From the NCBI GenBank assembly GCA_003999685.1, contig CP021231.1, positions 744,001 to 808,000 of the forward strand: DNA of 64,000 nt, given 5' to 3'. Numbering within the stretch: the first letter of the stretch is position 1; each line of letters begins with the position of its first letter. Of this stretch, positions 26,801 through 64,000 are shown piece after piece. Under the pieces are notes generated by a model. That model saw only the letters and a program-made list of their open reading frames with translations. It was not told the DNA's origin and made no database searches. This DNA comes from Taiwanofungus camphoratus. Taxonomy: Eukaryota; Basidiomycota; Agaricomycetes; Polyporales; Taiwanofungaceae. Made by a program: the position numbers and the translations under genes.

Positions 26801-27025
26801 TGGTCTGGATGGTCTGCAGTAGATGTGAATCCTTTTCGAACAGAATAAGATGTAAGACAATCCCACCTGAATAGTCTGAAAAATCTTCTGAAGCAAGGAT
26901 GCGGCAGCACTGACAGGAGGAAATTGCAACAAGGTGGCCAATTCTTGTGTGATAGCAGTAGTCGCTATTGCTGTACTGAGGACATTGTCCGCGGTCACTT
27001 TGGAGCGGATGTATTTCAGAGGCAT
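23873..27025 (-). CDS. Kinase-like protein with N-terminal MLKL/HeLo-like helical domain
   Basis: Minus-strand gene of many short exons, start taken at 27025 (MPLKYIRSKVTADNVL); an upstream in-frame Met exists at about 27094. The first ~190 residues are helical: LLQFPPVSAAASLLQKIFQT, ARRCLSLLLDIRDQMDGRW, FHRTLESINEYMRNEAAIKW, resembling the adaptor/MLKL N-terminal four-helix type common in Agaricomycetes. A kinase-like N-lobe follows: FRRYHQSELIIQGRSRIKEG and GGQRSLAKRYEGSA (candidate ATP lysine), then HPNLPQMIGYSSEETPTPF. Helical C-lobe pieces are ALLYLQRQLNLSDSKIQDY and ASFCIDAAHNLVMGLPPPEV. I find no HRD or DFG motif. A third part (24.2-24.9 kb) has WTIVVPAGTKQNLQIVHEAF and ends in a Gln/His/Pro-rich tail. 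The stop at 23873 overlaps a possible donor (GTAAGC), so the true end may lie further on. Role unknown; signalling by analogy. Confidence 0.6.
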
Positions 27026-27809
27026 GATCAAGGTCCAAGAGAAGAGTAAATCGAGGCCTGATAGATCGTATTCAATGAAATCTGCACCGCTCATGTCATT
27101 TCTGAGACCCGTCAACCCGTTGCTACCGCGCAGGGCGCCGCAGACTACTGTTCCGGGTAAAACCCATGGTCAAGTTTTTTGACAGTTTAGACACATGTCA
27201 GGGTGATAACTAGATTGACAAGTTATACACGAGTTAAAATAAGGCAGGAATATGCATCTTTTTCTGCAAATCCGCTTCCTGTAGACACTCGCGGTATTCA
27301 CTGCGCAGCAGTTTGTGGATCTAGTAAGTTCACCATAGGTTGTGCATCACAGCTTTGAGCTTGTCTGAGCCGGCGAATGGCCGGAAATCTGAGCGTGGCC
27401 AATAAACATTTCATCTACCATTTACCATGTTAGAGATGTGTGCGCGAATTCCGTCATCACACATATAACAGCATCAAGCCATTCTTCCTCATTCAACAGC
27501 AGAATGTGCATCCAGTAGACCTTGCATCTCCCAGACACCCTATGCTCCCTGAGTTTCAAACGCCTCAATCTTGCATTTCAGCTTTAGATATGGTTCAAAA
27601 CATGTTTTCAACTATGTCAAGACTGCCTTGTCTAAAATCCAGTAGTTTTACCCATGACAATTATTTCCAGCAAGTTTGCAACTTGGATTGAGGAATATGT
27701 AGCAATACTGGAGCGTACTCGCACTTGATTGAAAAGGAAGTAAAGCATGGAGAATAACAGTGTTTGGTTGGCAAAGGGCCCCACCTGGACCGAGATCTAC
27801 AATAGCATA
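27026..27809. other. Intergenic, left flank of the giant palindrome
   Basis: About 780 bp upstream of the kinase-like gene. I see no coding gene. At 27710-27800 lies a diverged direct copy of 28262-28360 from inside the left arm. The palindrome starts at 27810. Confidence 0.5.
27710..27800. repeat. Diverged direct repeat of left-arm DNA
   Basis: The segment starting GGAGCGTACTCGCACT and continuing through TTGGCAAAGGGCCC matches 28262-28360 (GGAGCGTACTCGCACT, then TTGGCACAGGGCCC) with scattered mismatches and a few gaps. It is on the same strand and about 550 bp away, just outside the palindrome. It suggests that related DNA was here before, or that the present arm end is not the original end. 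Confidence 0.6.
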
Positions 27810-28149
27810 CCTTCAAATTCTAGCTGGTTCAACGTCCGGTTTATTTATGACTATGATCCAACGGCCTCGCTAACGGTGTTATCTGCACATCGCAAGAGCA
27901 CGTTCGTACACGGCGTCATAATCATAGTCCGCAGTATGACCTGTTGAATCAGTGCCTGAATGACAACGAAGTGCCTAAAGGAATTGGAAAGTGAGCGCAT
28001 GACGCTGCACGCTGCACGTTGAAACGCTGAAGGTACGTTCTCCTGACTTGTATGGTGCTTGTAGTACTCGAAGCTGGAAGCTGGAAGCTTGAAGGTGAGA
28101 TAACTGCACGGTTCTCGGCGAAAAGGGCGTTGGTCGGACAGATCATGGT

Positions 28150-28162
28150 CACGTGGCACGTG
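28150..28162. promoter_or_regulatory. Doubled CACGTG box in left arm
   Basis: CACGTGGCACGTG contains two CACGTG E-boxes one base apart; an ACGCGT follows at 28198-28203. The same block is mirrored in the right arm at 37903-37915. CACGTG is the core of bHLH sites such as Pho4 and Cbf1. Use here is unproven. Confidence 0.4.
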
Positions 28163-29039
28163 ACTGACCACGGAAAACGTTATCGGAATTCGCGTTGACG
28201 CGTCGATGCAGTGATAGGGGTACGCGTTTCCGGCGGGCTCAGTGAGACTTGAATTGTGGAAGACGGAGCGTACTCGCACTGGATTCAAATTGAAGTAAAA
28301 GAAAATGGCGAAAAAAGTGTCTGATTGGCACAGGGCCCTACATGTGAACACGGTCTACATGAAAGCCCAATGCGGCACGTCGTTGTCTGAGGCGATATGT
28401 TGTGATGGCACCGACTAAATAATTCTTCACCAAGTATGTAAGGCATTTGCCGATCGACGTTCGACGGCACGCCATCATCCATAGCACCGTGGCTCTCAGG
28501 GCCACCATCATTTCGAATCGTGAACTACCTGAATTCCTGAATGCTGAGGGCTGAATCTCAGTTGCGATGTGTTTAAAGTTCTACTCTGAGTACTACTTGC
28601 ACCTTCACCACCTCGTCAAGACTTTCGACGAGGCCTCTCACACCCCTGCTCCATGTTAAAAGCTGTCCTTCGGTTACTTTCGAGCAGTACTACCATGCAG
28701 TCCCTGAGAGGTGTTTGAGGTGGGTCCAGAAGATGCCTAGTGGTTGTGGTCGATTTTGGCAATGGTAAGCGAGGATCCATAGCATGTTGCATCCCAGGTT
28801 GATAATCCTCGATCCTTGCACTAGCCGAATTCCGTGAACTGGGCAGAACGCTCCTCCTCACAAACGATCAACGTCGCTCAGTAAAAGTCTGCTTTCTAAG
28901 TCGCGAATGAATATTAAGCATGCATGCTCACGAGCTTCATCTAGCTGTGCTATGTCGGCGGTATTCGTTCGCATAGGGAAAGCTTTCGTGCACCTTGCTG
29001 ATATTGATGACTGTTGAATATGTCAATGAAGCCCCCGGT

Positions 29040-30300
29040 AAGAGCAATATCAATAAGGTGAGTGTATACGTATGTATAAAGCACACCGGACAGCGCTGAG
29101 CACTGCATAGCAGCTCCTTTACGTACATAAGTACATAACGCACGTCTTGTTTGTATTTTAGGCTGCAAGAGCATATTGTAGTGTGGCACGCTACGCTCGT
29201 CATCAATAACAGCGTCGTTTGCCGCTTAAAGCGCTATTTCCCCAACGAGGGAGAGCGTCACAGTACAGGATGTGGCTCGCAGGAAAGCAGAAATGCTGAA
29301 CCAGAGGTATATTCTCTCCTATCCATAGTTCCGATTCAGGTCTCGAGTGCATGCAAGGAACATGATACGACTGACTTCAAAAACGAGTGAGTGTCTATGG
29401 CTATGGCTGCATAACGTACTCACATTATCATGTTGACATATTCTCTCTCTGTGTGTGCGTGGCAGCGCCGCATGCAGCATCGACATCGACGAGGAAACCA
29501 TGCTGCGTAACAGCAGGTATAGTCTACGGTTATTCCCTGATATTGTTTGTGAAATTGGCTGTCGTGGTCGAATGAAGCTATGCGGGCTGTGTGCTTCACG
29601 TCTATTGACGGCAGAAACAGCAGGCGCGAGGCTAGTGATCGAAAGGCTTTGGCCCTGTTTACATGTGCAAGGAAGCTGATCAAACGAATAGCTTGGGATG
29701 ATTGTCTTTTGCCACCATACCCCGATCTTTGTGAGTCGCTTGACAAATTCCTCTGCTGTGACGGAGCCATGTTTGGGGGTATGACGTGCACCGACATGGG
29801 TTGTGCAAGGATGCTCTGGATCAAGATGCGGGAGAAGCACATAGTATGTTCAGTTGACGAGAGCACAGAGAAATACGGTGAGGAACACGCACGAGAATGG
29901 CCTCGTGGCCATTCCTCTCGGTTTTTGGCCTTACCAGGCTCTGGAACGACTTGAATGGGTCAAGGTTTTGGATCGTGTCCCAAGGACATTGCTTGACAGT
30001 GTCTACCCAGCCATGAGGCGCGGAGGTCTTGTTGTGAGATGTCGGTGCATCGAGGAGGGTCCAACAACATCTTTGTATCTCTTGCTTATCCCTCCAGGTC
30101 GGCCGACCAGTCTGACCTCAATGTTTTGTCGCTGGACGACGGATGGGTGGCGTCACCGTTCTGTTGACCTATGGCGTTCACGTAGTTTCTTGATACCGGA
30201 GCACCGGGGGTCGGGTCGCAGGAAAAACAAGCGGCAAATGCGGGAATTGATGAATGGAAAAGGACAAGGTAGGATAGCCCAACAGTCGGGGTAGGTCGCC
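29040..30300 (+). other. Unrecognised spliced gene-like segment in left arm
   Basis: Several open exon-sized blocks, each bounded by plausible GT..AG ends, run in the same direction as the zinc-finger gene. They include LQEHIVVWHATLVINNSVVC (from about 29161), SSACKEHDTTDFKNE (about 29340-29388), ACSIDIDEETMLRNS (about 29470-29515), a longer block with CARKLIKRIAWDDCLLPPYP (29,640-29,850), and WVKVLDRVPRTLLDS with CRWTTDGWRHRSVDLW (29,950-30,290). The start codon and frame across all introns were not fixed. A degraded version lies upstream of copy D (ATLVINNSV near 61160), so it belongs to the duplicated unit. No family is recognised; it may be a real gene or the decayed 5' part of one. Confidence 0.4.
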
Positions 30301-31025
30301 TCTCTGGGCATCCGCCGGTGGTGCTGCAGCCTAGTATGTAAGGCTCTCCGAACCGTCGGAGATCGTTGACTGAACAGTTCCTGCGTCACCTGCGCTGCGG
30401 GAGCGTGTAGGTAGGTAGGTAGGACGTTTGTATCGGCATGCGTGCTTGACTGACCCCGGGGGCACGGAAGAGCAGAAGTCAGGATCACCGAGGTGCAGGC
30501 GCGGATGTGGCCCAAGGTCGTTGTGGAGGTCTCGGTCGACGGCTTAGCTTCTGCTCCTCTCATTGGCAGCAAGAATCCTCTGAATAATGCCCGTATGGCC
30601 TCGATGGAAATGGGCTTTACTCTCGATTCGTCGAGAGCGGCCGTTCTGCTCTGTGCCACTCGCGCGACTAGGATCAAAGCCAGGATATTTGGGCAGCAGT
30701 GATGCGGTGAAAGCATGCACCGACCCAAACCACCCGTTGGCTGTGATGCGCACGTAGAAATATATTGTTTGAGGAGGTAAGCATGCCGCTCCGTTGGCCA
30801 ACGTCTTCGCGCGTGACAGGGAGGAGCGTGATGTTCATGTTTTGTGGGCGCACATCCTCTTTATAGAGTGTACGCGTTGTTTACCATTATGGTCCGCTTG
30901 TTTGCCCTATTTTAACGGGCCTCATTCTCAATCTTTCTCTCTTTCGACATCAACATTCACATCTTTCAACCCCCACCTCTTTGACCACTTTGACCTTTGA
31001 CCACTTTGACGACTTATCGACTGCC

Positions 31026-32416
31026 ATGTCTCAGGAATCATATTATTTGAATGGGATGGCCTCGTTCGACGAGGACGCCGAGGCATATGCCTTTATTGCT
31101 ACAGAGAACCCATTGGCTGAGTTGGTGTCTCAAAATATTCACCGCGCTCGACTTGTACTCAATCAAGGTCTATGGCATTCTAGGTGGGAACGCGTGCTCG
31201 CCGAAGTAACTTTGGCCTCTGACGGGTATGTGCCACTCCCTTTGACCTGACTGGCCACAACACCTGAACCGTCAACTTGCGCGCCTTTGTTTCTGACAGT
31301 TTTGATTACCCTGTTCTCCCCATGTTTCCCCCCTTGGATATTCGAGAGGATTTATTCTACGTAAGCGCCTTTTACCGTTTGTGACCAGAAGTTGGGCTCA
31401 CAGGACATTCAATAGCTAGAGAATCAGATGGAGCCGCCAGCAGACCCATCGTCCCCTGCAAGTTCTACCGGTCCGCAGGGACCGTCAGACGGCTCGTCGT
31501 CTTCCTCACCATCAAATGAGCCAATGAATGCTCTCCCTCCGCCGGTTCCGTCAACGGGCTTCAATCCTCCGACTATACTGCCGTGCGTACCATCCCTGAT
31601 ATATATATATATTACATCCGTATCGTCGCACGAAGTCTCATTGTGTTCGTCCCTACATGTAGGGTACCGCAGCAGCCAGTCGAGGGATCCCAACCAATAT
31701 CGCTACAGGCAGCACACCACAGCGACGTGCCTGCCATCGCTCAAATTAATGATCCATCCTCGAGATCACCCACGCCGCCGCGGAGCTCGGCGCCATCGGA
31801 CACTGCCTGCATCCCTTTGGATGCGGCGCCCACCCGGTCTGCGACAAGACCGAGGACAGCACGCAGGAAGCGACCCTGCGTGGATGAGGGTGATACCGAA
31901 CCACAGGCCGGCCCCAGCCAGCCTGTTGAACACTGCCACCACCGCCGCCGCCGCCGCTTAAATGACGGTAATGCCATAGCTGTGGCCGATCCACCACCTC
32001 CGCCTCCGCAACCTGTTGCGGGACCATCAACGGAGCCTATGGACCCTGTTTCGCAATGCTCCTGGCGAGGGTGCAGGGAGCATGTCTCGCGCGACAGCGC
32101 CTGGAGGCATTTTCGAGCGGCACATTTGGGAGAGGCACAGAACGGCAGGATAACCTGCCAGCATCCCAGCTGCCTCACGAAAGGACACAGACGGGATATG
32201 AGCGTTTCGAACATGAAACGACACTATGAAGCAGACCTGGATTTCAGGACTTACACATGTCCATATTGCGGCGCAGAATTTAAGCGTGGTGACATGAGGA
32301 ACCGTCACATGGAGCACCACTGCCGTGTGTGTCCACACTGTCTGCAAGACTTTAGTTCATCTACCGCAAGGAATGAACACTGCAGGAGGTGCCCCTTTTG
32401 TCGTCCCTCAGGGTAG
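31026..32416 (+). CDS. Multi-finger Cys/His zinc-finger protein, arm A copy
   Basis: Four exons close in frame: 31026-31225, 31300-31360, 31416-31582 and 31663-32416, 393 residues. ATG 31026 starts MSQESYYLNGMASFDEDAEA. A short folded N-terminal segment (SRWERVLAEVTLASDG, FDYPVLPMFPPLDIREDLFY) is followed by a Pro/Ser-rich linker and a basic patch (RPRTARRKRP). The C-terminal ~120 residues hold clustered Cys/His fingers: CSWRGC..H..H, CQHPSCLTKGH..H, CPYCGAEFKRGDMRNRHMEH and CPHCLQDFSSSTARNEHC. This suggests nucleic-acid binding, probably in the nucleus; the exact family is not recognised. Intron 3 contains a TA microsatellite. The gene faces an identical copy across the palindrome axis. Pieces of the same design occur in copies C and D. 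Upstream DNA (about 30,480-30,900) is also shared with C and D, so the promoter was copied with the gene. Confidence 0.82.
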
Positions 32417-32948
32417 CAGTCCGACCAGGTATCGAGGTGTGCCGACTTTGCCTCACTCGGGACCCAGGGATGTTGATTCCGCACTGCGCATCAACATATT
32501 CCCAGCTGCCTCACAATACGGCGCCGTGCTTGGTTTGGTGTACACCAAGAATACTACCCATGGACGTAAACGTCCAAGTCCACCATTATTCTTCCATTTT
32601 TTCTTCGTCATCACAAGCTGCTCTCGTGGTGTATTCCATTCCATCCATGCATGTAGCATATTATCCCACTCATCCGCTTGCCTTGCGTTCGTACCGCTGT
32701 CTAACCCTCTGGCCATATTCACTCTTCAAATTTCCGGCGTTGCTGCAATTTTGTATTAGCATCCCAACTATTGTGTAGCATACTGTCTGCCCGGTCTCAG
32801 TCAAATTGTTTTCGCATCATTAGCTCTATCAAACACTCTTAGAAGTCATATTTGGTTTTCGAACTCCACTGTGCTGCGTGATATGATGGTTAAGTTCATT
32901 GTGTATTTTTTGAGGCTGCCGTTGCGAGATGCACATCAGCCATGCTGC

Positions 32949-33116
32949 TGATTCATCACGAATGATTGGCAAGGATGACACTTTCCCAATTTGGCCTCAC
33001 AGATGCCAGTCCACAAAGTTCATTGAAATTTTAGCCTATCATCCTAGCAAGTAAATAGTCATGGTGGAGGGTGTAATTTGTATTGCACTGCTTGTTTATT
33101 AGATGCAGTAGACACT
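32949..33116. other. 168-bp asymmetric spacer at the palindrome centre
   Basis: This is the only sequence between the two arms. It does not pair with itself and has no open frame of note. It is AT-leaning and unlike the arms. Such a spacer would form the loop of a very long hairpin. Confidence 0.9.
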
Positions 33117-33648
33117 GCAGCATGGCTGATGTGCATCTCGCAACGGCAGCCTCAAAAAATACACAATGAACTTAACCATCATATCACGCAGCACAGTGGA
33201 GTTCGAAAACCAAATATGACTTCTAAGAGTGTTTGATAGAGCTAATGATGCGAAAACAATTTGACTGAGACCGGGCAGACAGTATGCTACACAATAGTTG
33301 GGATGCTAATACAAAATTGCAGCAACGCCGGAAATTTGAAGAGTGAATATGGCCAGAGGGTTAGACAGCGGTACGAACGCAAGGCAAGCGGATGAGTGGG
33401 ATAATATGCTACATGCATGGATGGAATGGAATACACCACGAGAGCAGCTTGTGATGACGAAGAAAAAATGGAAGAATAATGGTGGACTTGGACGTTTACG
33501 TCCATGGGTAGTATTCTTGGTGTACACCAAACCAAGCACGGCGCCGTATTGTGAGGCAGCTGGGAATATGTTGATGCGCAGTGCGGAATCAACATCCCTG
33601 GGTCCCGAGTGAGGCAAAGTCGGCACACCTCGATACCTGGTCGGACTG

Positions 33649-35039
33649 CTACCCTGAGGGACGACAAAAGGGGCACCTCCTGCAGTGTTCATTCCTTGCG
33701 GTAGATGAACTAAAGTCTTGCAGACAGTGTGGACACACACGGCAGTGGTGCTCCATGTGACGGTTCCTCATGTCACCACGCTTAAATTCTGCGCCGCAAT
33801 ATGGACATGTGTAAGTCCTGAAATCCAGGTCTGCTTCATAGTGTCGTTTCATGTTCGAAACGCTCATATCCCGTCTGTGTCCTTTCGTGAGGCAGCTGGG
33901 ATGCTGGCAGGTTATCCTGCCGTTCTGTGCCTCTCCCAAATGTGCCGCTCGAAAATGCCTCCAGGCGCTGTCGCGCGAGACATGCTCCCTGCACCCTCGC
34001 CAGGAGCATTGCGAAACAGGGTCCATAGGCTCCGTTGATGGTCCCGCAACAGGTTGCGGAGGCGGAGGTGGTGGATCGGCCACAGCTATGGCATTACCGT
34101 CATTTAAGCGGCGGCGGCGGCGGTGGTGGCAGTGTTCAACAGGCTGGCTGGGGCCGGCCTGTGGTTCGGTATCACCCTCATCCACGCAGGGTCGCTTCCT
34201 GCGTGCTGTCCTCGGTCTTGTCGCAGACCGGGTGGGCGCCGCATCCAAAGGGATGCAGGCAGTGTCCGATGGCGCCGAGCTCCGCGGCGGCGTGGGTGAT
34301 CTCGAGGATGGATCATTAATTTGAGCGATGGCAGGCACGTCGCTGTGGTGTGCTGCCTGTAGCGATATTGGTTGGGATCCCTCGACTGGCTGCTGCGGTA
34401 CCCTACATGTAGGGACGAACACAATGAGACTTCGTGCGACGATACGGATGTAATATATATATATATCAGGGATGGTACGCACGGCAGTATAGTCGGAGGA
34501 TTGAAGCCCGTTGACGGAACCGGCGGAGGGAGAGCATTCATTGGCTCATTTGATGGTGAGGAAGACGACGAGCCGTCTGACGGTCCCTGCGGACCGGTAG
34601 AACTTGCAGGGGACGATGGGTCTGCTGGCGGCTCCATCTGATTCTCTAGCTATTGAATGTCCTGTGAGCCCAACTTCTGGTCACAAACGGTAAAAGGCGC
34701 TTACGTAGAATAAATCCTCTCGAATATCCAAGGGGGGAAACATGGGGAGAACAGGGTAATCAAAACTGTCAGAAACAAAGGCGCGCAAGTTGACGGTTCA
34801 GGTGTTGTGGCCAGTCAGGTCAAAGGGAGTGGCACATACCCGTCAGAGGCCAAAGTTACTTCGGCGAGCACGCGTTCCCACCTAGAATGCCATAGACCTT
34901 GATTGAGTACAAGTCGAGCGCGGTGAATATTTTGAGACACCAACTCAGCCAATGGGTTCTCTGTAGCAATAAAGGCATATGCCTCGGCGTCCTCGTCGAA
35001 CGAGGCCATCCCATTCAAATAATATGATTCCTGAGACAT
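33649..35039 (-). CDS. Multi-finger Cys/His zinc-finger protein, arm B copy
   Basis: Mirror image of the arm A gene with an identical predicted protein and the same four exons (34840-35039, 34705-34765, 34483-34649, 33649-34402). Stops of the two copies are about 1.2 kb apart, tail to tail, with the spacer between them. Identity of the full coding sequences points to very recent duplication or ongoing gene conversion. Confidence 0.82.
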
Positions 35040-35764
35040 GGCAGTCGATAAGTCGTCAAAGTGGTCAAAGGTCAAAGTGGTCAAAGAGGTGGGGGTTGAA
35101 AGATGTGAATGTTGATGTCGAAAGAGAGAAAGATTGAGAATGAGGCCCGTTAAAATAGGGCAAACAAGCGGACCATAATGGTAAACAACGCGTACACTCT
35201 ATAAAGAGGATGTGCGCCCACAAAACATGAACATCACGCTCCTCCCTGTCACGCGCGAAGACGTTGGCCAACGGAGCGGCATGCTTACCTCCTCAAACAA
35301 TATATTTCTACGTGCGCATCACAGCCAACGGGTGGTTTGGGTCGGTGCATGCTTTCACCGCATCACTGCTGCCCAAATATCCTGGCTTTGATCCTAGTCG
35401 CGCGAGTGGCACAGAGCAGAACGGCCGCTCTCGACGAATCGAGAGTAAAGCCCATTTCCATCGAGGCCATACGGGCATTATTCAGAGGATTCTTGCTGCC
35501 AATGAGAGGAGCAGAAGCTAAGCCGTCGACCGAGACCTCCACAACGACCTTGGGCCACATCCGCGCCTGCACCTCGGTGATCCTGACTTCTGCTCTTCCG
35601 TGCCCCCGGGGTCAGTCAAGCACGCATGCCGATACAAACGTCCTACCTACCTACCTACACGCTCCCGCAGCGCAGGTGACGCAGGAACTGTTCAGTCAAC
35701 GATCTCCGACGGTTCGGAGAGCCTTACATACTAGGCTGCAGCACCACCGGCGGATGCCCAGAGA

Positions 35765-37025
35765 GGCGACCTACCCCGACTGTTGGGCTATCCTACCTTG
35801 TCCTTTTCCATTCATCAATTCCCGCATTTGCCGCTTGTTTTTCCTGCGACCCGACCCCCGGTGCTCCGGTATCAAGAAACTACGTGAACGCCATAGGTCA
35901 ACAGAACGGTGACGCCACCCATCCGTCGTCCAGCGACAAAACATTGAGGTCAGACTGGTCGGCCGACCTGGAGGGATAAGCAAGAGATACAAAGATGTTG
36001 TTGGACCCTCCTCGATGCACCGACATCTCACAACAAGACCTCCGCGCCTCATGGCTGGGTAGACACTGTCAAGCAATGTCCTTGGGACACGATCCAAAAC
36101 CTTGACCCATTCAAGTCGTTCCAGAGCCTGGTAAGGCCAAAAACCGAGAGGAATGGCCACGAGGCCATTCTCGTGCGTGTTCCTCACCGTATTTCTCTGT
36201 GCTCTCGTCAACTGAACATACTATGTGCTTCTCCCGCATCTTGATCCAGAGCATCCTTGCACAACCCATGTCGGTGCACGTCATACCCCCAAACATGGCT
36301 CCGTCACAGCAGAGGAATTTGTCAAGCGACTCACAAAGATCGGGGTATGGTGGCAAAAGACAATCATCCCAAGCTATTCGTTTGATCAGCTTCCTTGCAC
36401 ATGTAAACAGGGCCAAAGCCTTTCGATCACTAGCCTCGCGCCTGCTGTTTCTGCCGTCAATAGACGTGAAGCACACAGCCCGCATAGCTTCATTCGACCA
36501 CGACAGCCAATTTCACAAACAATATCAGGGAATAACCGTAGACTATACCTGCTGTTACGCAGCATGGTTTCCTCGTCGATGTCGATGCTGCATGCGGCGC
36601 TGCCACGCACACACAGAGAGAGAATATGTCAACATGATAATGTGAGTACGTTATGCAGCCATAGCCATAGACACTCACTCGTTTTTGAAGTCAGTCGTAT
36701 CATGTTCCTTGCATGCACTCGAGACCTGAATCGGAACTATGGATAGGAGAGAATATACCTCTGGTTCAGCATTTCTGCTTTCCTGCGAGCCACATCCTGT
36801 ACTGTGACGCTCTCCCTCGTTGGGGAAATAGCGCTTTAAGCGGCAAACGACGCTGTTATTGATGACGAGCGTAGCGTGCCACACTACAATATGCTCTTGC
36901 AGCCTAAAATACAAACAAGACGTGCGTTATGTACTTATGTACGTAAAGGAGCTGCTATGCAGTGCTCAGCGCTGTCCGGTGTGCTTTATACATACGTATA
37001 CACTCACCTTATTGATATTGCTCTT
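35765..37025 (-). other. Unrecognised spliced gene-like segment in right arm
   Basis: Mirror copy of 29,040-30,300 with no differences seen. See that entry for the exon-like blocks and the doubts about frame. Confidence 0.4.
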
Positions 37026-37902
37026 ACCGGGGGCTTCATTGACATATTCAACAGTCATCAATATCAGCAAGGTGCACGAAAGCTTTCCCTATGCGAACGA
37101 ATACCGCCGACATAGCACAGCTAGATGAAGCTCGTGAGCATGCATGCTTAATATTCATTCGCGACTTAGAAAGCAGACTTTTACTGAGCGACGTTGATCG
37201 TTTGTGAGGAGGAGCGTTCTGCCCAGTTCACGGAATTCGGCTAGTGCAAGGATCGAGGATTATCAACCTGGGATGCAACATGCTATGGATCCTCGCTTAC
37301 CATTGCCAAAATCGACCACAACCACTAGGCATCTTCTGGACCCACCTCAAACACCTCTCAGGGACTGCATGGCAGTACTGCTCGAAAGTAACCCAAGGAC
37401 AGCTTTTAACATGGAGCAGGGGTGTGAGAGGCCCCGTCGAAAGTCTTGACGAGATGGTGAAGGTGCAAGTAGTACTCAGAGTAGAACTTTAAACACATTG
37501 CAACCCAGATTCAGCGCTCAGCATTCAGGAATTCAGGTAGTTCACGATTCGAAATGATGGTGGCCCTGAGAGCCACGGTGCTATGGATGATGGCGTGCCG
37601 TCGAACGTCGATCGGCAAATGCCTTACATACTTGGTGAAGAATTATTTAGTCGGTGCCATCACAACATATCGCCTCAGACAACGACGTGCCGCATTGGGC
37701 TTTCATGTAGACCGTGTTCACATGTAGGGCCCTGTGCCAATCAGACACTTTTTTCGCCATTTTCTTTTACTTCAATTTGAATCCAGTGCGAGTACGCTCC
37801 GTCTTCCACAATTCAAGTCTCACTGAGCCCGCCGGAAACGCGTACCCCTATCACTGCATCGACGCGTCAACGCGAATTCCGATAACGTTTTCCGTGGTCA
37901 GT

Positions 37903-37915
37903 CACGTGCCACGTG
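37903..37915. promoter_or_regulatory. Doubled CACGTG box upstream of the SurE gene
   Basis: CACGTGCCACGTG lies about 385 bp before the start codon of the SurE gene at 38301, inside the right arm. Pho4-type bHLH factors use CACGTG at phosphate-regulated genes, and SurE proteins are phosphatases, so a phosphate-response role is possible. This is inference only. Confidence 0.35.
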
Positions 37916-38300
37916 ACCATGATCTGTCCGACCAACGCCCTTTTCGCCGAGAACCGTGCAGTTATCTCACCTTCAAGCTTCCAGCTTCCAGCTTCGAGTA
38001 CTACAAGCACCATACAAGTCAGGAGAACGTACCTTCAACGTTTCAACGTGCAGCGTGCAGCGTCATGCGCTCACTTTCCAATTCCTTTAGGCACTTCGTT
38101 GTCATTCAGGCACTGATTCAACAGGTCATACTGCGGACTATGATTATGACGCCGTGTACGAACGTGCTCTTGCGATGTGCAGATAACACCATTCACGAGG
38201 CCGTTGGATCATAGTCATAAATAAACCGGACGTTGAACCAGCTGGAATTTGAAGGCCTGAGGCTTTTACTCTTCTCTGTTGTTGCACTGGAGCTTCCGCA

Positions 38301-39524
38301 ATGTTCAGCACCAGCGTACTTCACTTTCCTTTCATACTCTTGTGTGCAGCGGCGACCTGCGCTAGAAACCTGGTGCTTACCAACGATGACGGATGGGCAG
38401 TAGCGTCGATTCGGGGACAGTACGAAGCGTTAACGAAAGCCGGGTTCGATGTGGGCTTTACCAAGTCCCATTGCATTCTCGAATTCATTGGATATTGCTC
38501 AGGTGGTCTTGTCCGCTCCAACGGAGAATCAGTCTGGCACTGGCTCGGACACAACGACTCCGACTGTTCTGACTGAGCCTTGCGAGTATGATACTTGCCC
38601 AATTGGATCGCCTCCCGAGGGCTTCAATGCAAGCAACCGTGAGTTTCTGATTGCATCTCCAAGGGTCCGGGGTGTTAATTTACCATTACAGCTCACTTGA
38701 ACTATGTGAACGGCTACCCGTAAGTGTTGAACCGATCATTATCGAGCTATAAATTTGATAAGATAAGTTTAGTGTGGACTCTGTCCGATATGGGATTCAG
38801 ACTCTTGCGCCCAAGTTCTTCTACGGGTTCGCACCTGTCTTTGTCGTTAGCGGACCCAACATTGGAAGTAAGCGCCCTATTTCTGAACAGTGAACAATAT
38901 ATAGTATTCACACTGCTAAATTTAACTCCCCCCAAAGACAACCTGGGAGGAACCACTCAGATATCGGGTACCGTGTACGTGTATCTCCGCATAATCAGCG
39001 AACCCAACAGCACCTGACCTTTCACTGTTCCGCTTAGTGGCGCCGCGTGCGAAGCCGCAAAGGAAGGCATTCCGTCCACTGCCTTCTCTGGAGACACCGG
39101 TGCGCAGGTATCGTACACGACACTCGCAAGCGATCCGGACGCGTCGTCCTCACAGTCTGCCCGCATCTACGGGCAGCTCACCACGCACTACACCGAGACG
39201 CTTCTCCTCGCGGGGCTGCTCTTCCATCCGCTCCTACCGCCGGGGATTACGGTGAACGTGAATTACCCGTCGATCGACGGCTGTGCTAACCCTGCGGACT
39301 ACCGATGGGTGTTCGCCAGGAATGTGGCGGGCAGTGGCGGAACGGACGTGGAGACGTGCGGGAGCAAGACGTTGCCCGCGGAGTCAGACGTCGTGGGCAC
39401 TAGCGGGTGCTACATCAGCGTGTCCGTCATTGATGATACGACCAAGACGGATGTTGACTCGACACTCCAAGCTGCTGTCTTGGAGAGGCTGCTTGGACTG
39501 CCGTTCAGCTGCTTGCCGAATTGA
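38301..39524 (+). CDS. SurE-family phosphatase / 5'-nucleotidase, secreted (copy 1)
   Basis: Six exons can be joined in frame from ATG 38301. The N-terminus is a signal peptide (MFSTSVLHFPFILLCAAATC), followed at once by NLVLTNDDGWAVASIRGQYE, the SurE metal-binding NDDG motif. After the first intron (GTGGGC donor) comes VVLSAPTENQSGTGS, the second SurE loop. Later exons give LNYVNGYP, VDSVRYGIQTLAPKFFYGFA, FVVSGPNIG, LGGTTQISGTV and a large last exon GAACEAAKEGIPSTAFSGDT..VSYTTL. It ends LGLPFSCLPN. SurE enzymes remove phosphate from nucleoside monophosphates and other esters; fungal secreted members are acid phosphatases. The palindrome ends 45 bp upstream, so its promoter lies largely in repeat DNA. 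A second copy in opposite orientation lies at 41490-42689. Confidence 0.88.
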
Positions 39525-47014: not shown

Positions 47015-47017
47015 TTA

Positions 47018-55459: not shown

Positions 55460-56289
55460 AAGAAATTTACGAGACTGTCCTAAAATCAGGTGAGGCTATG
55501 AGCATACAGTATGCTGACTTTGCGATTCGCCTGACACGTGGGTTGCCTCTCGGGAATTGCCGCCGAGGCGCAGGTGCCTCGAGACTCCCAGAACGATTTG
55601 GTAACAATGAAAGTGGGGTTTGCAGGCCTAGGCATTGCGGCGTTTTGCCCGGTGCCACTCGTATCAAAGCGAGGCAGAGGCGATGCAGCGTCAAATCGGG
55701 TACGGTCCCAAACAATCCTATGGCTGTAATACGCACGATAAGGCATTCTTTCAGGAGGTAAGTGCGTTGGTACCTGGACACGGAAGAACGTGATGTTCAG
55801 GTTTGTGCATCCTCTTTGTATGCGCGTGTATTTACTTCGCTTGGTGCATTCTATAGTCGTGTGCAAATCACCGTCGCGATGGAATTCTTGCAAAATGTTC
55901 GGTGTCGGAAATGTTGCAAGGGCGGCACTGCGCTCTGCTATGTCAAAATGCCATGTTCCAGCTCTGATTGTATGAAATAAGTGCTTTCATCAGGCTAATG
56001 ACATTTTCTCAAATGTTCTGAGCACGAACATGCTGTTTTGTCCCCACTATTTTTTTGCAATTGCTTCCATTGTCTTCCGCTTTCACTTGTTTTCCCCAAT
56101 TGCTTTTGTTTGTTTTCCTATTTTGCTTTCATTTGTCTTCCTATTTTGCTTTCGTTTGTCTTCCATTTTTGCTTCCAATTGTGTTTCCCATATATATAAC
56201 GGGCCTCCCCTCACTCTTCTTGTCCAAAATCACCGTGTACATCTACATCCAGATCAACGTTGCCCTTTTGACGAGATCGACAATTCATC
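55460..56289 (+). repeat. Unit 5' flank shared with palindrome arms and copy D (copy C)
   Basis: This stretch aligns with about 30,480-30,950 of arm A and 62,390-62,800 of copy D. Shared blocks include GTGCCACTCG..TATCAAAGC, GGAGGTAAGTG and the CATCCTCTTTGTATG..CGTGTATTTAC run. It holds the promoter-side DNA of the family. Its 3' part is a pyrimidine-rich tract (56,047-56,190). Confidence 0.65.
56047..56190 (+). repeat. Pyrimidine-rich degenerate tandem repeat
   Basis: Variants of TTTGTCTTCCTATTTTGCTT recur three to four times with a period of about 24 bases. It lies directly upstream of the copy C coding remains. It probably formed by slippage. Confidence 0.6.
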
Positions 56290-58400
56290 TTATGCATGAA
56301 CAAAGGCACGATCTAGTGGCAATGACCCCGACTGATGATAACCTACCCGATGAGTTTGTGTCTTTCAAGTTTGCTTGTCGTGACCGCATTATACTCAATC
56401 TCAGTCTGATATCCCAGGTGGTTTCGCGAGTTCACAGAAAATCCTGGAAGCGAAAATGCGTATGGTTTATCTCTTCCGAATGTGCTACAAGGCTCATCGG
56501 TGGGTCCATCGTCTCACGCCTCTATGAACGGACTATCACGGGCTTTTCGTCAGCCTGTGCCCTCCATGAGCATCACGCATCTTATTCTGATGACCAAACC
56601 AACCTATAACTTGATGCAAGGGACCTCAACTTCCGACGAGATATCGGAGTCTGCCGCTTTCGACAGGTCGGTAATCCCAAGTATTTGTTTTTTACAGTGC
56701 ATATTCAATCCGACTCTGATATTCTAGGTGGTTTCTCGAGCTCACAGAAATGATTCTGAGCTTTGAGGTGGATATGACAACGACCGCGGCCTCCGACTTG
56801 TCATCGGAGTCTGTTGCGTTCGAAAGGTTGGTATCTCAAAGTATTTGTCCTTTACAACATGTACTCAATCTTGGTCTATGACATTTCAGGTGGTTCCGTG
56901 AGTTCACGGAAATGCCTATCAGGGAGAATGCGTATGTACCATTCGCTATGCCCTGGCTGGCCACATCGACGGGTGTTAACTCATTCGCTTTTACCCTTGC
57001 AGGTTCGAATATACGAGCGTCGCGGGCCCTTCTGGATCGTGCGTATCGTTCCTGCTATATTTTATACATGTCACTGAAGCAGAACTTGATCGTTCATCAC
57101 TATTACTTCCAATGACATACAGTAGGATAGAGCGGTCCATTGACCGCGAGTATGAGGTGGCGGGTGTGCTTCTCGACAAGCTGGCGAACCTGTTCGACAC
57201 TCCACTTCCGCCAGTTCCCGGGAGCGTCACGTCTCAACAGGCCACAGGCGTGTATGAGTGGTGAGTGCACTGTTAAGTCTCGTTGGACGTGTCTGATTAC
57301 AATGTCAGGGATCCTAGTTTCGGACTTGCAGGCGGTCCAATGTTCAACCCCTTCAGTATTGACTGGCTGGTGGCCACTACTACTGAAAATCAAGATGTGC
57401 TGTGTCCATGGTTGGCGGAGCCCTTCCCCATCCTGCTGGTGCCATCCCAAGCGCCTCTGTACTGCAAGGCATTTGCTATGCTGCTACCGCTAGACCTTTT
57501 CCCGATGATCGTCGCGTCGCAGGAGGCGGCATATGTCATGCCATAGAGCTCGATGCCATGGAGGAGCATTGTGCCTCAGCATGTGTCCATCCAAACTGGC
57601 GTGGCCATGGCTCAGTGGTGAGTGCGCTGCCTATTATTGCCTGATGAGACTTGTTCCAACGTCAGCGGCGCATCCAAGTTTCGGACAGGGTCCGATGTTC
57701 GACGGCCTTTTCCCACGGACTGTCATGCTGCATCGAGCAACCTATACTGGAGCACAGAAGTCGACACCATGGGAGGATTCCAACGGCCCTATCGACCCTG
57801 CATTCATCCCGCTGACGACGCGACCGAGGATAAGACAGCCGAACGCCAGACGCACGAAGCCGGCCTGCACTCATGACGGCCATACTGAGCCACTGCCTGG
57901 CCCATCGACTAACAGCCAACCAACTCAGTGGTGCCGTCATAGAAGTCCCAACAATGCAATCGCCATGGCCACTCCTCCATCCCTCCTTTCGAGCGTGCAT
58001 AGCCTATCGCAGGAGCTCCGACCGAGCGAAATAATAGCAATGGTATGGCACTACCTGCTGTTGCCATCCCAGCTGCACCTACGCAAACACATCACGGGGT
58101 CATCGACGGTGCCCATGTTGCTCGCACACGGTGCCCGTGACAAGATACAAAGTACGGGTTCGCCGGAGCACTGTGTGTATGCACCTCCGGGCCACGCATA
58201 TGGAGGAGACGCGCGATGGCAGGGTTGCCTGCCAGCACGCTGCGTGCGTGAGCAAGGCGTGTGGGTGTGACATGGGTGTCGGGAATATCAAGCAGCACTA
58301 CCGAACTGGGCTTCCAGGGACACAAGTGCCCCAACTGCGGCGCAGAATTCAAGCATGGGGACATGTACAGGAGGCATCTCAGCATCAGGATAAATCAGGG
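56290..58400 (+). pseudogene. Decayed zinc-finger family copy C
   Basis: Family exons are recognisable but cannot be read through. Two start-like regions exist, at about 56,295 (MHEQRHDLVAM) and 56,590 (MTKPTYNLMQGTSTSDEIS). The repeated N-terminal module appears three times: WFREFTENPGSENA, WFLELTEMILSFEV and WFREFTEMPIREN. It is followed by FEYTSVAGPSGSC, DREYEVAGVLLDKLANLF and DPSFGLAGGPMFNPFSIDWL; a second PSFG-like piece lies near 57,670. The frame then breaks. The finger region survives only in alternating frames, as RATHMEETRDGRVACQHAAC (about 58,200) and KCPNCGAEFKHGDMYRRHL (about 58,330). Internal duplication of exons and frame loss mark it as a pseudogene related most closely to copy D. 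Confidence 0.75.
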
Positions 58401-58414
58401 TAGCTCCTGATGCT
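58381..58414. repeat. Perfect 10-bp hairpin at the end of copy C
   Basis: AGCATCAGGA (58381-58390) and TCCTGATGCT (58405-58414) are exact reverse complements with 14 bases between them. It overlaps the last codons of copy C. Confidence 0.6.
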
Positions 58415-58430
58415 ACGGCAACTACAACCA

Positions 58431-58460
58431 AATCTATAGCACTATATATTGCTATAGATT
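58431..58460. repeat. Perfect 11-bp AT-rich hairpin after copy C
   Basis: AATCTATAGCA (58431-58441) and TGCTATAGATT (58450-58460) flank CTATATAT. It lies 16 bp after the previous hairpin. It may be a 3'-end structure or an inserted palindrome. Confidence 0.6.
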
Positions 58461-59327
58461 GGGGATGTAGCAAATCCAGCTACATAGTTACCTGCATTTT
58501 TCCTGATGAGGCGCCATTGACATGTTTGCCCACACTGCTCAGAGGACCTGGGCTCATCTGCTGCAATGAATGAACACCTTGCTGTGTGCCCCAAATGGCC
58601 AGGCTATCAAGGGTAGCCTCTGGTAGGCTTTGCAAGATGTACTTTCAATGTCATCCTTCGCTCGATGTAGAATTGATGACTGAAAGGATGCCGGCACAGA
58701 AGTTCGAGACACCCAAGCAGGAGATGCTATCGGAAGATCTACCAACCTACCACCTCTTGGCCTGCAAAATGTCTATGGATATGAGGAAGTGTTGACAAAA
58801 CTGGCTCCGACTCTCAAAAGGATGGATGTGCTCTCCGGCATGTGCGCAATTTCGGCAGGAGATAATAGGTTGCCTCCTTTCTTCTTGGTCTAGTAAGTGC
58901 AGGGTTGGGCTAGCCATCAAGGTCCCTGATGAGGCCCCTTGGCAAGGGCCGAAACCCTTGTCTCCCTGCTTTCATTTTTGCTCACACAAATTAGAGGCCT
59001 GTCCCAGAAGACAGGCTTTGACTTTATGAGTGAGATTGACACTCAGTTAGTTGTGGTGCTGTGGCTTGTACCCTTCTGTAGCATGTGTCGAGACATTAGG
59101 TGACAGGATGCTCGGGCCCTGCACATTCACATACTAATTCCGACCCTCTAGCGATTGTGTATGGTAAGGATTTGCCGCTCATGGATGTAAATGTTCCAGA
59201 CCAGTCGTTGTCTCTTTTCCATCGTCGCAAGCCACTGTCTTCGCTGGAATCCAGGTACGTATGTTTGCCTGCCACAGAGGTATATACCCATTAACTAGCG
59301 ATGATGTCCATTTCGACGTGACTGCAG
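58461..59327. other. Intergenic
   Basis: About 870 bp between copy C and the P450 fragment. No gene is recognised; earlier P450 exons were looked for and not found. Confidence 0.45.
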
Positions 59328-59886: not shown

Positions 59887-61029
59887 CCCAAGTTTCCTAT
59901 AGCATGCATACAGTTGTTTCCTCTTCTTTCCTATGATCGCGACCTGAGATCTGGGCTGCTATGCGTACACCACTATACGTAAAGCGGAGTACGTCGGCCT
60001 TCCTGTGTACAATATGAAATCCAACGGAGTTGCCATCCCCGATCGTAGGTACCTGCTTGAGCTGTAGTTTACGTTCTGTAAAATTGATGTTTCCTGGTGT
60101 GGGGTCACTCAGGGCTGCGCACTTGCCTTTCTGGACAACAGGCTGCCCGAGCCCTGTTTCATTTTTTTCTTAAACCGAGAAAGTCCTCGATAAAGCTCGT
60201 TACCAACACAATAATGCAATTTCATTCATACATACTGTCTCAGCTAGGTGGGCTACAATGTCCTACGGAAGGGCCTCTTCAATCCCTTGACAGTGTCGGC
60301 CGACGCCCATCTCGATCAAAGTCACACGTACACCTATGTACAGTCATTCAAAGAATACAATACCTCCGATCACCGGCACTTTTAAGCACTGGCAGATAAG
60401 ACTTGTATGCTGCTAGGGGAGATGTGGTTCTGTCATCTCAGGCTGTATCCAACTTGACCTTAACAGGCAAAGATCTACTACAGTGCCCTTAGCCTCTATA
60501 TATTGCGACGACACTCAGTTGCAGACTGTTCCCTCCGGTATACTTCAGGAGGGCGACCGTCGTGTATCACGTGCCAGTGATTGACGCGTCGTCGCCGACT
60601 CGCAGTGATCGCATTGTATTGAAGGAGTGTGCAGCGGGCGGCTTGTACTAAATAGTAGTTTTGCCTTCTCATTTTCCACGAAGCCCCTCGCGCTCGGCTT
60701 GTCATGTAAATGCACTTCCTCCACTAATCTCGAGCGGTACGGTCGTAAGGTTGCAGTGGGTCTAGACGATGTCTTCGCCGAATCCTCCGGCGGTGCGTCA
60801 GCATTTAAAGCACAGAACACCTTCGCAATCCTCAAACTTTGCACAGGTGAGCGACATTCCGCTCTAAAATGGACCGCTGAAACGCCACGTCCAGTTGCCA
60901 AAGCTAATGGGATTGGTCTTGGTGCACCGCACAGGGTCCTTGGCGGTGCGGTGCTGTGCCAGCAGTAGTATAAGGACAGCGCATGACGTTGCACACTCAC
61001 ACTGATTGGATCCGTCCCTGAAGCTCCCA
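59887..61029. other. Intergenic
   Basis: About 1.1 kb. Nothing is recognised. An ACGCGT at 60584-60589 lies next to CACGTG, recalling the similar motif cluster near the outer ends of the palindrome arms. Confidence 0.4.
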
Positions 61030-62880
61030 CTTGAGCGACGTCGTACAAGTGAGTATGCACACATATCGCATTGTGCAGGACTGAGCGTTGCATACGCAGC
61101 TGCTTTTCGTATATGCTGTTTTATCATAGATTGCGCCAGCATATAGCATGTCAAGCTACACTCGTCATCAATAATAGCGTCTTCCCTTCGCCGCTGACCG
61201 AATCTACACCTGTTGTCTCCTTCAATCGAGGAACTATGCTGATTTCGTTCAAGGGAACTATCGTAGCGTCGTGAATGTGTGCACATATTTTAAACTGGGA
61301 ATCAAAGGCAACGCTCTGCTATCCATAATCACAGGTCACATACAAGAAACATAACGCTATGAACCTAAAAGGTGAGTGCATATGGCTACAGGTGTATAGC
61401 GTGCTCATTTTTTAACCTTAGTCTTTTATCCCATGGGTTCATTGCTCTGCAGAATGCAGCTGCCTTGGACATCAGGTAGGAAATCTGTCTCACAGGAAAA
61501 GACGATGTCCGATCGTTTACCTACAAATCTTGTGGATTTGGAGTGACTGACATTGTCGACTGGAGCCATATGGGACTGTTTGTTAGCCTCTGGCAGAAAG
61601 GAGGCCTGAGGCCAAGCATTGGCAGCAAGTCGCTTGTTGAATTTCCCTGTGATTTCGGAGCTGCGCTTGTGGGATAAGGTGTGCAACTGAAAATGGCCCA
61701 GCGCAGATCCTTAAGATCAAATTGGGGGGGAAGGCATGATGCTTATTGGACAAGAGCACGGAGCATCACGATGCGGAATGCACTCGAGAGCAGGTTCCTA
61801 GCAATCCATTGCATTTACTGGTCTTAGGCTCCTGGCTCTGGCTCGGCTTCTGTGGTCAAGAATTCTCGTCCTGCCCCTGGAACCTCTCGATTGCGTCTTT
61901 TGGCGTGGCAGCCTTTGTAGGGGTTTCGCAGCCTTGGACTCGGAGGTTATGTCGAAGGAAGTATGGGCACTGAATCGGCAGGTGGTGCACCGGAAACGTC
62001 CAACAGCAGTGTTGCGTCTGCTAATGGTCCCCTCAGGTCTCTGACATATCTGGCCGCATGTTCCTCTGTTGCTGGTCGACGGACGCCCTGAGTATTGTCT
62101 GCTAACCTACGGAGCTCCTGTGAAATGTATCAACGCCCATGTCCAGGCTCACGTTGTTGGGAAGCTGCGCGTTCAATTCGAGGTCGACACAGGGAAAGGC
62201 TATGCAAGCATTCTTGCACTCCGCGTAGTTCGCATCCGCTGGCACTACATCCTAGAGTGAGGCCCGCCTTGATGTCGACCCAGAAGTGGTGCCTTGAATC
62301 GGCTATGTATTCCGTGCGGGAGCGTCCAGGTAGGATGTCTGTGTTGGTGCACTTTTCTACTACATGGGGACTGAATTCTCGGTCATTGGTCTAGGACCGC
62401 TGAAGTGGAGGCGCGGATGTGCCCCGGGGAGATTGTGAAGTCAAGCATCTCACTAACAGCGGCCACAGATATGTTGCTTCGGTAAGAGTTTGTTCTCGAC
62501 ACGGCAGGGCGGGGGCATGTTCCGGCTGGTGCCACTCGCGCACTAGTATCAAAGCGAAGGTATTTGGAATACGCAGCCTCAAAGCACACTCGATCACAAA
62601 CAGTTTGATCGCGGTGATTCGCGGAATAAAGGATCCTTTGTGGAGGTGAGTGTGATGATGTATTAGTAGGGTTCTTCACAGGCCAAGGCGTATAGACATG
62701 GCGACGGAACGTGGTATTCGAGTTTTGTGGGTGCTCTTTGTGCGCACGTATAATTTACAGTTTGACTTCCGCGATCACTTCCGTTTGTCTCTCCCACTTA
62801 AAATGGCCTCCTTCCTTCATCCTTCGCTTCCCACATCATCATCCTAATCCAATCAATCTAACGCCTTACGCCTTACGCCT
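61030..62880 (+). repeat. Diverged copy of the arm unit upstream of copy D
   Basis: This aligns in order with about 29,050-30,960 of arm A at moderate identity. Matching blocks are ATLVINNSV (about 61160), the TATGGCTACA region (61380), a CCTCAGGTC..CTGACATATC..GCTGGTCGACGG block near 62,030 against 30,095-30,140, and GGAGGCGCGGATGTG with TATCAAAGCGAAGGTATTTGG near 62,405-62,570. The unrecognised gene-like blocks are degraded here. It shows that the duplicated unit is at least 3.5 kb long. Confidence 0.65.
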
Positions 62881-62909
62881 TTCGAACTTGGACGCTTCAT
62901 CTTATTCCG

Positions 62910-64000
62910 ATGTCTAACACAATCTATAACTCAATGCAAGGGACCTCGGCCTCTGACGATATATCAGAGTCTGCCGCCTTCGACCGGTCGGTAATCCCAA
63001 GTATTTGTTTTTTACAGTGCATATTCAATCCGACTCTGTGATATTCTAGATGGTTTTCTGAACTTACGGAGTTGGTTCTGAGTTTTGAGGTGCCAACGAC
63101 CGCGGGCTCCGACTTGTCATCGGAGTCTGTTGCATTCGAAAGGTTGGTATCTCAAAGTATTTGTCCTTTACAACATGTACTCAATCTTGGTCTGTGACAT
63201 TTCAGGTGGTTCCGCGAGTTCACGGAAACACCTATCAGGGAGAATGCGTATGTACCATTCGCTATGCCCTGGCTGGCCACATCGACGGGACTGTTAACTC
63301 ATCCGCCTTTACCCTTGCAGGTTCGAATACACGAGCGTCACGGGCCCTTGTGGATCGTGCGTATCGTTCCTGCTATATTTTATACATATCACTGAAGCGG
63401 AACTTTGTTGTTCATCACTATTACTTCCAATTACATACAGTGGAGTGGGGCAGGTTTTCGATCGCGAGTATGAGGCGGCGGGTGCGCTTCTCGACGAGCT
63501 GGCGAACCTTGACGCTCCGCTTCCGCCAGTTCCCGGGAGCATCATGCCTCAACAAGCCACAGGCACGTATGAGTGGTGAGTGCACTGTCTAGTCTCGTCG
63601 GATGAGTCTGATTACAATGTCAGGGATCCAAGTTTCGGACTTGCAGGTGGTCCGACATTTGACCTTCGCAGTATTGACTGGCCGGTGGCCACCACCACTG
63701 AAGACCAAGGCATGTTGTATCAATGGCTGGCGGAGCCCTTCCCCGCTCCGTTGGTGCCGTCCCAGGCGCCGATGCACCACGAGGTATTTGCCATGGCGCC
63801 AGACCCGTCCCTGATGACTGCGGCGCCGCAGGGGGCGGCATATGTCGGACCCCAGAGCTCGGTCGCATGGGAGGTCCCCGAAGGCGCACTGGACTCCACA
63901 TTTGGCCCACCAGCGGCCCCGCGGCCAGCAAGGCAGCCCAGAACGAAACGCACGAAGCGGACGCGTGCCCCCGACGTCGACACGGGACCGGCTGCTGGCC
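62910..64000 (+). CDS. Zinc-finger family copy D, 5' part (runs off the window)
   Basis: Six exons close in frame: 62910-62986, 63050-63142, 63206-63247, 63321-63356, 63441-63575 and 63624 to beyond 64000. The start is MSNTIYNSMQGTSASDDISE. Two repeated N-terminal modules follow, SESAAFDRWFSELTELVLSF and SESVAFERWFREFTETPIRE, then FEYTSVTGPCGS, VFDREYEAAGALLDELANL and DPSFGLAGGPTFDLRSIDW. A Pro/Ala-rich linker ends in a basic patch (RQPRTKRTKRTRAPDVDT) that matches the basic patch before the fingers in the arm copies. The zinc fingers should lie just beyond the window. No break is seen, so this copy may be intact. Its N-terminal half differs strongly from the arm A/B protein. Confidence 0.72.

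What the first reader, a model, noticed from the sequence alone, without database searches (positions are those of the whole stretch)
27810..38255. Giant palindrome: two 5,139-bp arms around a 168-bp spacer
Arm coordinates satisfy x + y = 66065 throughout, and both arms carry complete genes. Natural inverted repeats of this length and near-identity are rare in fungi because they are unstable and refractory to replication. The object could be a fold-back duplication, a young inverted segmental duplication, or a maintained structure.
Basis: seen in the sequence. Interest (0 to 1): 0.85.

Follow-up and report, generated by a model that had tools for sequence, protein, structure and literature searches.

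The report
Gene-bearing near-perfect inverted duplication
A 5.1-kb stretch of what looks like a fungal chromosome, carrying a small zinc-finger-like gene, sits next to a mirror-image copy of itself, most likely a local inverted duplication whose inner four-fifths have been kept letter-for-letter identical by one copy overwriting the other.

Summary
Near-identity is therefore not simply youth; it looks like arm-to-arm gene conversion that spared the outer edge. I predict one intact gene per arm, a 393-codon zinc-finger-like protein, the two copies tail to tail. Diverged same-strand relatives lie at about 55.6-58.6 and 61.0-64.0 kb, so this is the newest event in a local gene-family expansion; the left arm is probably the original. 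No transposon domain in the arm parts scanned, no exact target-site duplication, no third copy. Yeast inverted Ty pairs (about 6 kb arms, 25-280-bp spacers) persist in wild type, so 'refractory to replication' is too strong, though literature also calls such structures rare and unstable. No reads, sister strain or host genome was available; I give assembly error 0.22. New member of a known kind; moderate interest.

The parts
27810..32948 (+). left arm, probably the original copy
   Evidence: same strand as the diverged paralogous units and next to a related repeat
32949..33116 (.). unique 168-bp spacer; 1 CpG, observed/expected 0.15 against 0.95 in the arms
33117..38255 (-). right arm, probably the inverted new copy
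27810..28692 (+). diverged outer segment of left arm (13 substitutions in 883 bp)
37373..38255 (-). diverged outer segment of right arm
28693..32948 (+). identical core of left arm, 4,256 bp
33117..37372 (-). identical core of right arm, 4,256 bp
31026..32416 (+). predicted zinc-finger-like gene, left copy; proposed introns 31226-31299, 31361-31415, 31583-31662; 393 aa (other choices for introns 2 and 3 also stay open)
   Evidence: finger matches below Pfam cut-off; PDB:
33649..35039 (-). predicted zinc-finger-like gene, right copy, identical; 1,232 bp between the two stop codons
27693..27801 (+). repeat just outside the left arm, 76% identical over 113 columns to 28251-28359 inside it (mirror 37706-37814)
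28251..28359 (+). copy of the same repeat inside the left arm
55637..58617 (+). diverged, apparently decayed paralogous unit (a weaker match starts at 55379, E 0.17)
61001..64000 (+). diverged paralogous unit, cut by the window end
38301..39524 (+). SurE-like gene (exons not modelled); its proposed ATG is 45 bp beyond the right arm, so its upstream region lies in the palindrome

Best explanation
A local inverted segmental duplication of a zinc-finger-gene unit. Inferred: the left arm is the original; a replication or repair event (fold-back or template switch) copied it backwards and joined the copy just upstream of the SurE-like gene. Inferred from the mismatch pattern: the arms then diverged by about 1.5%, and arm-to-arm gene conversion has since erased all differences from the inner 4,256 bp, leaving the outer 883 bp. 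Shown: geometry, mismatch pattern, one open and identical gene model per arm, diverged same-strand relatives nearby, no transposon signs found. The 168-bp spacer probably makes the pair replicable while leaving the arms close enough to recombine. The likely effect is a doubled, concertedly evolving zinc-finger gene; no further function is needed.
For: Exact geometry. Asymmetric mismatches: 13 in the outer 883 bp, 0 in 4,256 bp, about 63 expected. The identical core spans gene and non-coding DNA alike, so selection on the protein does not explain it. Paralogous units at about 55.6-58.6 and 61.0-64.0 kb lie on the same strand as the left arm. The only match of the arm to 1-27809 at E 0.1 or below is the repeat ending 9 bp outside the left arm. 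No exact TSD; no Pfam family at E 0.1 in six long frames of 28000-32991 and none above cut-off in 10 ORFs of the arm scanned singly; no third copy beyond the right arm. Yeast precedent: inverted Ty pairs with spacers of 25-66 and about 100 bp are recombination hotspots.
Against: No outgroup or sister strain, so conversion rests on one pattern and could be a single event. Mismatches are mildly clustered (5 of 12 gaps of 10 bp or less, simulated P 0.0105) and 3 of 13 are C/G changes, which could mean error-prone copying or poor bases. Arm GC (0.517) is not clearly above the flanks (0.480, 0.520): no sign of GC-biased conversion. In yeast, lengthening the spacer significantly reduced hotspot activity at HS4, and the pair with a 280-bp spacer was reported as a hotspot in cells low in polymerase alpha, so 168 bp may be long for active recombination. 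The six-frame scan is of limited sensitivity: it missed the finger match that the single ORF gave. An assembly error is not excluded. The polarity rests on two weak clues.
Confidence: 0.55

Rival explanations
1. Assembly error: either a false join through a fold-back read, or two real but more divergent copies whose inner parts were given one shared consensus because reads could not be placed.
For: No reads or independent assembly were available. Differences reach only about 0.9 kb in from the unique flanks, roughly one Sanger read length (recalled). Artificial palindromes are common in amplified libraries (40-50% of reads in the Arabidopsis samples) and were found in 0.5% of reads of an unamplified PacBio control (PMC6218980, passages).
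Against: A fold-back read returns to the same flank, but here the two flanks are unrelated, and 13 differences show two distinct outer segments. Under consensus sharing, reads anchored in the unique spacer should show differences in the innermost part too; there are 0 in the innermost 883 bp, P about 2e-6 at the outer rate.
Confidence: 0.22
2. A very recent inverted duplication without later gene conversion; the outer differences arose during the event itself (error-prone break-induced synthesis, or joining of two different alleles).
For: Clustered mismatches, including 27870/27871/27874 and 28559/28560, fit mutagenic copying; identity elsewhere is complete.
Against: Errors of one synthesis event need not stop at 883 bp; their absence from the other 83% of the arm needs a second, separate step.
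Confidence: 0.18
3. A giant fold-back or terminal-inverted-repeat transposon with 5.1-kb ends.
For: Geometry alone: long inverted ends around a short centre.
Against: No exact target-site duplication of 2-20 bp; no transposase, integrase or reverse-transcriptase domain in the arm scans (limited sensitivity); beyond the short flank repeat, the arm's relatives in the window are gene-family units.
Confidence: 0.03

Closest known systems
Arm-converting palindromes of mammalian sex chromosomes and the willow W chromosome
   Same: Gene-bearing inverted arms; in the mammalian ones identity above 99% attributed to arm-to-arm gene conversion (PMC8981503 and PMC7023750, passages).
   Different: Arms of 5 kb here, against 8.7 to 1,450 kb for human P1-P8 (PMC6218980, passage); no evidence that this lies in a sex-determining or non-recombining region; conversion inferred from one sequence.
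Natural inverted Ty pairs of Saccharomyces cerevisiae (HS3, HS4, the 280-bp-spacer pair of chromosome III)
   Same: About 6-kb inverted arms with 25-280 bp spacers in wild-type fungal cells; HS3 and HS4 are mitotic recombination hotspots (PMC3616911, passages; PMC7999016, passages).
   Different: Those arms are retrotransposons; here no transposon domain was found.
Fold-back, tandem-inversion-duplication and ODIRA products
   Same: Local inverted copies formed by fold-back or template switching (PMC10766186 introduction; PMC10622511 and PMC4689423, passages).
   Different: ODIRA predicts an inverted triplication; no third, direct copy is present.
Divergently arranged pheromone genes of Cryptococcus mating-type loci
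   Same: Duplicated genes in a basidiomycete arranged so that they may act as inverted repeats (PMC12510652, passages).
   Different: The passages stress inversion loops and structural instability at a mating-type locus; no palindrome with the arm identity seen here is described in them.
Arabidopsis VIM4-VIM2 inverted gene pair of Cvi-0
   Same: An inverted gene pair with a shortened intergenic region (PMC13213937, abstract and outline).
   Different: There read-through gives siRNAs that silence relatives; no RNA data exist here.

Membership tests
Arm-converting palindrome | two inverted arms, identity above 99%, unique spacer shorter than the arms | tested here: met
   99.747% over 5,139 bp, 168-bp spacer
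Arm-converting palindrome | genes inside the arms | tested here: met
   one open gene model per arm, identical; expression not testable
Arm-converting palindrome | arms more alike than expected from the age of the duplication | tested here: inconclusive
   0 differences in 4,256 bp against about 63 expected from the outer 883 bp, but no outgroup
Arm-converting palindrome | location in a sex-determining or non-recombining region (typical, not universal) | tested here: inconclusive
   no mating-type domain in the parts scanned; not all of the window was scanned, long-frame scans are insensitive, and the chromosome is unknown
ODIRA inverted triplication | third copy in direct orientation beyond the inverted one | tested here: not met
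   38256-43500 has only short chance-level matches to the arm (best 21 bases, E 0.23)
Fold-back priming | short pre-existing inverted repeat at the centre of symmetry | tested here: inconclusive
   the arms run to the spacer, so a primer repeat would be absorbed; within the spacer the longest exact inverted pair found (6-12 bp searched) is 7 bp
TIR or fold-back transposon | target-site duplication | tested here: not met
   no exact shared 2-20 bp at the two outer edges; mismatched TSDs not searched
TIR or fold-back transposon | transposase or integrase domain | tested here: not met
   six long frames of 28000-32991, 10 ORFs of the arm singly and the gene's main ORF: none
Inverted Ty-type retrotransposon pair | arms are retrotransposons | tested here: not met
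C2H2 zinc-finger proteins | profile match above the curated cut-off | tested here: not met
   zf-C2H2 17.0 bits against 25.2; best phmmer match is the finger protein Aart, E 1.6e-5; zinc-finger-like by sequence, below Pfam's bar
siRNA-producing inverted gene pair | read-through transcript and small RNAs from the arms | not testable with these tools
   no RNA data

The most novel reading that the evidence does not exclude
The palindrome is a maintained, self-correcting structure that also acts as a hairpin-RNA locus: the tail-to-tail gene pair is read through the 168-bp centre into a transcript with a kilobase-scale double-stranded stem, whose small RNAs tune the local zinc-finger family, while hairpin pairing that starts at the centre lets repair equalise the arms from the centre outwards. 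That would explain why only the outermost 883 bp differ. [quoted passage not shown]
Probability: 0.06. Interest if true: 0.75.

Novelty: new member of a known kind. Interest (0 to 1): 0.4.

Why it matters
If real, it is a gene-bearing, apparently non-transposon inverted duplication, in what looks like a fungal chromosome, with the mark of arm-to-arm conversion, a process described in the papers I saw for mammalian and willow sex chromosomes. One survey concluded that perfect inverted repeats with arms of thousands of bases are almost exclusively bacterial, but it allowed spacers of at most 8 bp (PMC13155455, passages), so this one falls outside its search. It offers a test of how a 168-bp spacer, between those of yeast hotspots and of the yeast pair stable in wild type, affects stability and conversion.

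Tried and rejected
Transposon reading: rejected for lack of an exact TSD and of any transposase domain in the scans. Inverted triplication: rejected for lack of a third copy. Second gene in each arm: ORFs at 29.3-30.9 kb score weakly on both strands, their counterparts at 61-62.5 kb carry stops or match only in short pieces, and the one Pfam match among them is sub-threshold (COA2, E 0.023); I do not call a second gene, but do not exclude one. CpG loss as a sign of old silencing of the arms: arms 0.95, window 0.95; no support. Plasmid origin: no megablast match of the 10,446-bp structure in the plasmid collection (only collection and mode tried). Relatives in viral contigs: one scan with 250 residues of the gene found none. 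The second SurE gene as guide to the ancestral upstream region: 42400-44500 has only short chance-level matches to the arm (at most 24 bases, E 1.8 or worse). Pfam coverage: six frames of 22815-27805, 28000-32991 and 38255-43245 and 30 single ORFs plus the spliced protein; the rest of the window was not scanned in full. Long-frame scans missed matches that single ORFs gave (zinc finger and MLKL_N). Literature: ten searches; among the titles and abstract starts listed I saw none about a multi-kb, gene-bearing palindrome with arm conversion in a mushroom-type fungus, but the library is partial and the searches are not exhaustive. Papers opened: 11, as passages, abstracts or one section, none in full.
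Full report
OBSERVATION. The inverted repeat is real in the given sequence and the coordinates are exact: arms 27810-32948 and 33117-38255, 5,139 nt, 168 nt apart; x + y = 66065 along the arms; 99.747% identity, 13 mismatches, no gaps. The window has no N. The next longest inverted pair found in the window is a pair of SurE-like genes at about 68-75% identity.

MISMATCH PATTERN. All 13 substitutions (9 transitions, 4 transversions, 3 of these C/G) lie in the outer 883 bp, 1.47%; the inner 4,256 bp have none, where about 63 would be expected at the outer rate. Under uniform placement P is 1.1e-10 for independent sites and 7.6e-7 when mismatches within 15 bp are merged into 8 events. Within the outer part they are mildly clustered: gaps of 5 bp or less 3 of 12 (simulated P 0.042), of 10 bp or less 5 of 12 (P 0.0105). 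The identical core covers gene and non-coding sequence, so it is not the work of selection on a protein. The simplest reading is duplication, some divergence, then arm-to-arm gene conversion that did not reach the outer edge. A single conversion tract would suffice.

CONTENT. Each arm has one open gene model, ATG 31026 to stop 32416 on the left and its mirror, 35039 down to 33649, on the right, identical. With introns at 31226-31299, 31361-31415 and 31583-31662 it encodes 393 residues; other choices for introns 2 and 3 also stay open. The C-terminal part is zinc-finger-like: zf-C2H2 at 17.0 bits, below Pfam's cut-off of 25.2, and a phmmer match to the finger protein Aart, E 1.6e-5. The two genes point at each other with 1,232 bp between stops. 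Six long frames of 28000-32991 gave no Pfam family at E 0.1; this scan is insensitive, since it missed the finger match that the single ORF gave. Ten ORFs of the arm scanned singly gave one sub-threshold match, COA2 at 15.2 bits against 27. Codon scoring gave only weak signals on both strands elsewhere in the arm. So I predict one gene per arm, not several.

SURROUNDINGS. The arm unit from 29,010 to 32,417 has diverged relatives on the plus strand at about 55,637-58,617 and 61,001-64,000 (57-70% identity in pieces; protein-level matches). The first looks decayed: its finger segments lie in different frames and a stop falls just before the last. The palindrome is thus the newest event in a local expansion. 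The left arm shares the strand of these relatives, and its immediate flank holds a repeat (27693-27801) 76% identical to 28251-28359 inside the arm; both are weak hints that the left arm is the original. On the right, a SurE-like gene starts 45 bp outside the arm (SurE profile). Other genes: RRM protein, GH3 hydrolase, tuberin and Rap-GAP (a TSC2 homologue), a GEN1-type resolvase, a protein kinase, a tRNA pseudouridine synthase, a partial otubain and HMG box, one tRNA. These and the short proposed introns suggest a nuclear fungal chromosome; that it is an Agaricomycete is my inference from recall, not a test. No host genome is held.

WHAT IT IS NOT. There is no exact target-site duplication of 2-20 bp and no transposase, integrase or reverse transcriptase domain in the scans, so it is not filed as a transposon. 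ODIRA predicts an inverted triplication (PMC4689423, passages); no third copy lies to the right. It has no megablast match in the plasmid collection.

STABILITY. One paper agrees in part: long palindromes, short-spacer ones included, are unstable wherever introduced and rare in natural genomes (PMC10766186, introduction). But a review reports fork stalling in eukaryotic cells for inverted Alus with a 12-bp, not frequently with a 52-bp, spacer, and a 6-kb Ty pair with a 280-bp spacer that is stable in wild-type yeast (PMC7999016, passages). In wild-type yeast, Ty pairs with spacers of 25-66 and about 100 bp are mitotic recombination hotspots; an expanded spacer reduced that activity at HS4 (PMC3616911, passages). 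A 168-bp spacer falls between, so a persistent pair whose arms sometimes recombine is plausible without special machinery.

ASSEMBLY ERROR. Without reads this cannot be excluded. Against a fold-back read: the two outer flanks are unrelated (best flank-to-flank match 22 bases) and the outer arms differ. Against a shared consensus of unplaced reads: reads anchored in the unique spacer should then show differences in the innermost part as well; there are none in 883 bp, probability about 2e-6 at the outer rate. For it: differences end about 0.9 kb from the unique flanks, close to one Sanger read (recalled). I give it 0.22.

MECHANISM, SHOWN AND INFERRED. Shown: geometry, mismatch pattern, gene model, relatives, no transposon signs found. 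Inferred: origin by fold-back or template switch, left arm original, gene conversion. Arm GC (0.517) against flanks of 0.480 and 0.520 gives no sign of GC bias. The spacer is CpG-poor (1 CpG, ratio 0.15), but it is only 168 bp long.

BOLDER READING. Centre-outward equalisation through hairpin pairing, and read-through hairpin RNA as in the Arabidopsis VIM4-VIM2 pair (PMC13213937, abstract and outline), are not excluded and not supported by direct data. [quoted passage not shown] probability 0.06.

VERDICT. A confirmed inverted duplication; new member of a known kind; interest 0.4, mainly for the conversion pattern in a gene-bearing palindrome.

Noticed in passing
17936-20842 (-): A GEN1-type Holliday-junction resolvase gene (GEN1_C E 1.7e-28; XPG_N just under its cut-off) lies about 7 kb from the palindrome, the kind of enzyme that could cut a cruciform; probably coincidence.
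   Followed up: partly
38356-39491 and 41523-42635: Two SurE-like genes in inverted orientation, 67.7% identical at DNA level: an older inverted gene duplication beside the palindrome that shows no sign of recent homogenisation.
   Followed up: partly
56578-57561 and 62898-63870: Direct duplicate of part of the zinc-finger gene family, 84.8% identical, 6.3 kb apart.
   Followed up: partly
32949-33116: The spacer has a single CpG (observed/expected 0.15) and GC 0.40, against 0.95 and 0.517 in the arms.
   Followed up: no
58001-59500: Lowest CpG observed/expected of the window (0.51-0.57 in 1-kb windows) over and just after the decayed zinc-finger paralogue, possibly a trace of methylation of a repeat.
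   Followed up: no
26457-27071 (-): ORF with a weak, sub-threshold match to the MLKL N-terminal domain (E 0.0035), in the left flank.
   Followed up: no
45609-46097 and 46791-47264: Aminotransferase class IV piece (sub-threshold Pfam match) followed by a second ORF 59% identical to it over 80 residues (E 5e-26) that has no Pfam match: a tandem, probably partial, copy.
   Followed up: partly
44182-44269 (-): A tRNA gene found by Rfam (37.8 bits) but not by ARAGORN with the bacterial code.
   Followed up: no
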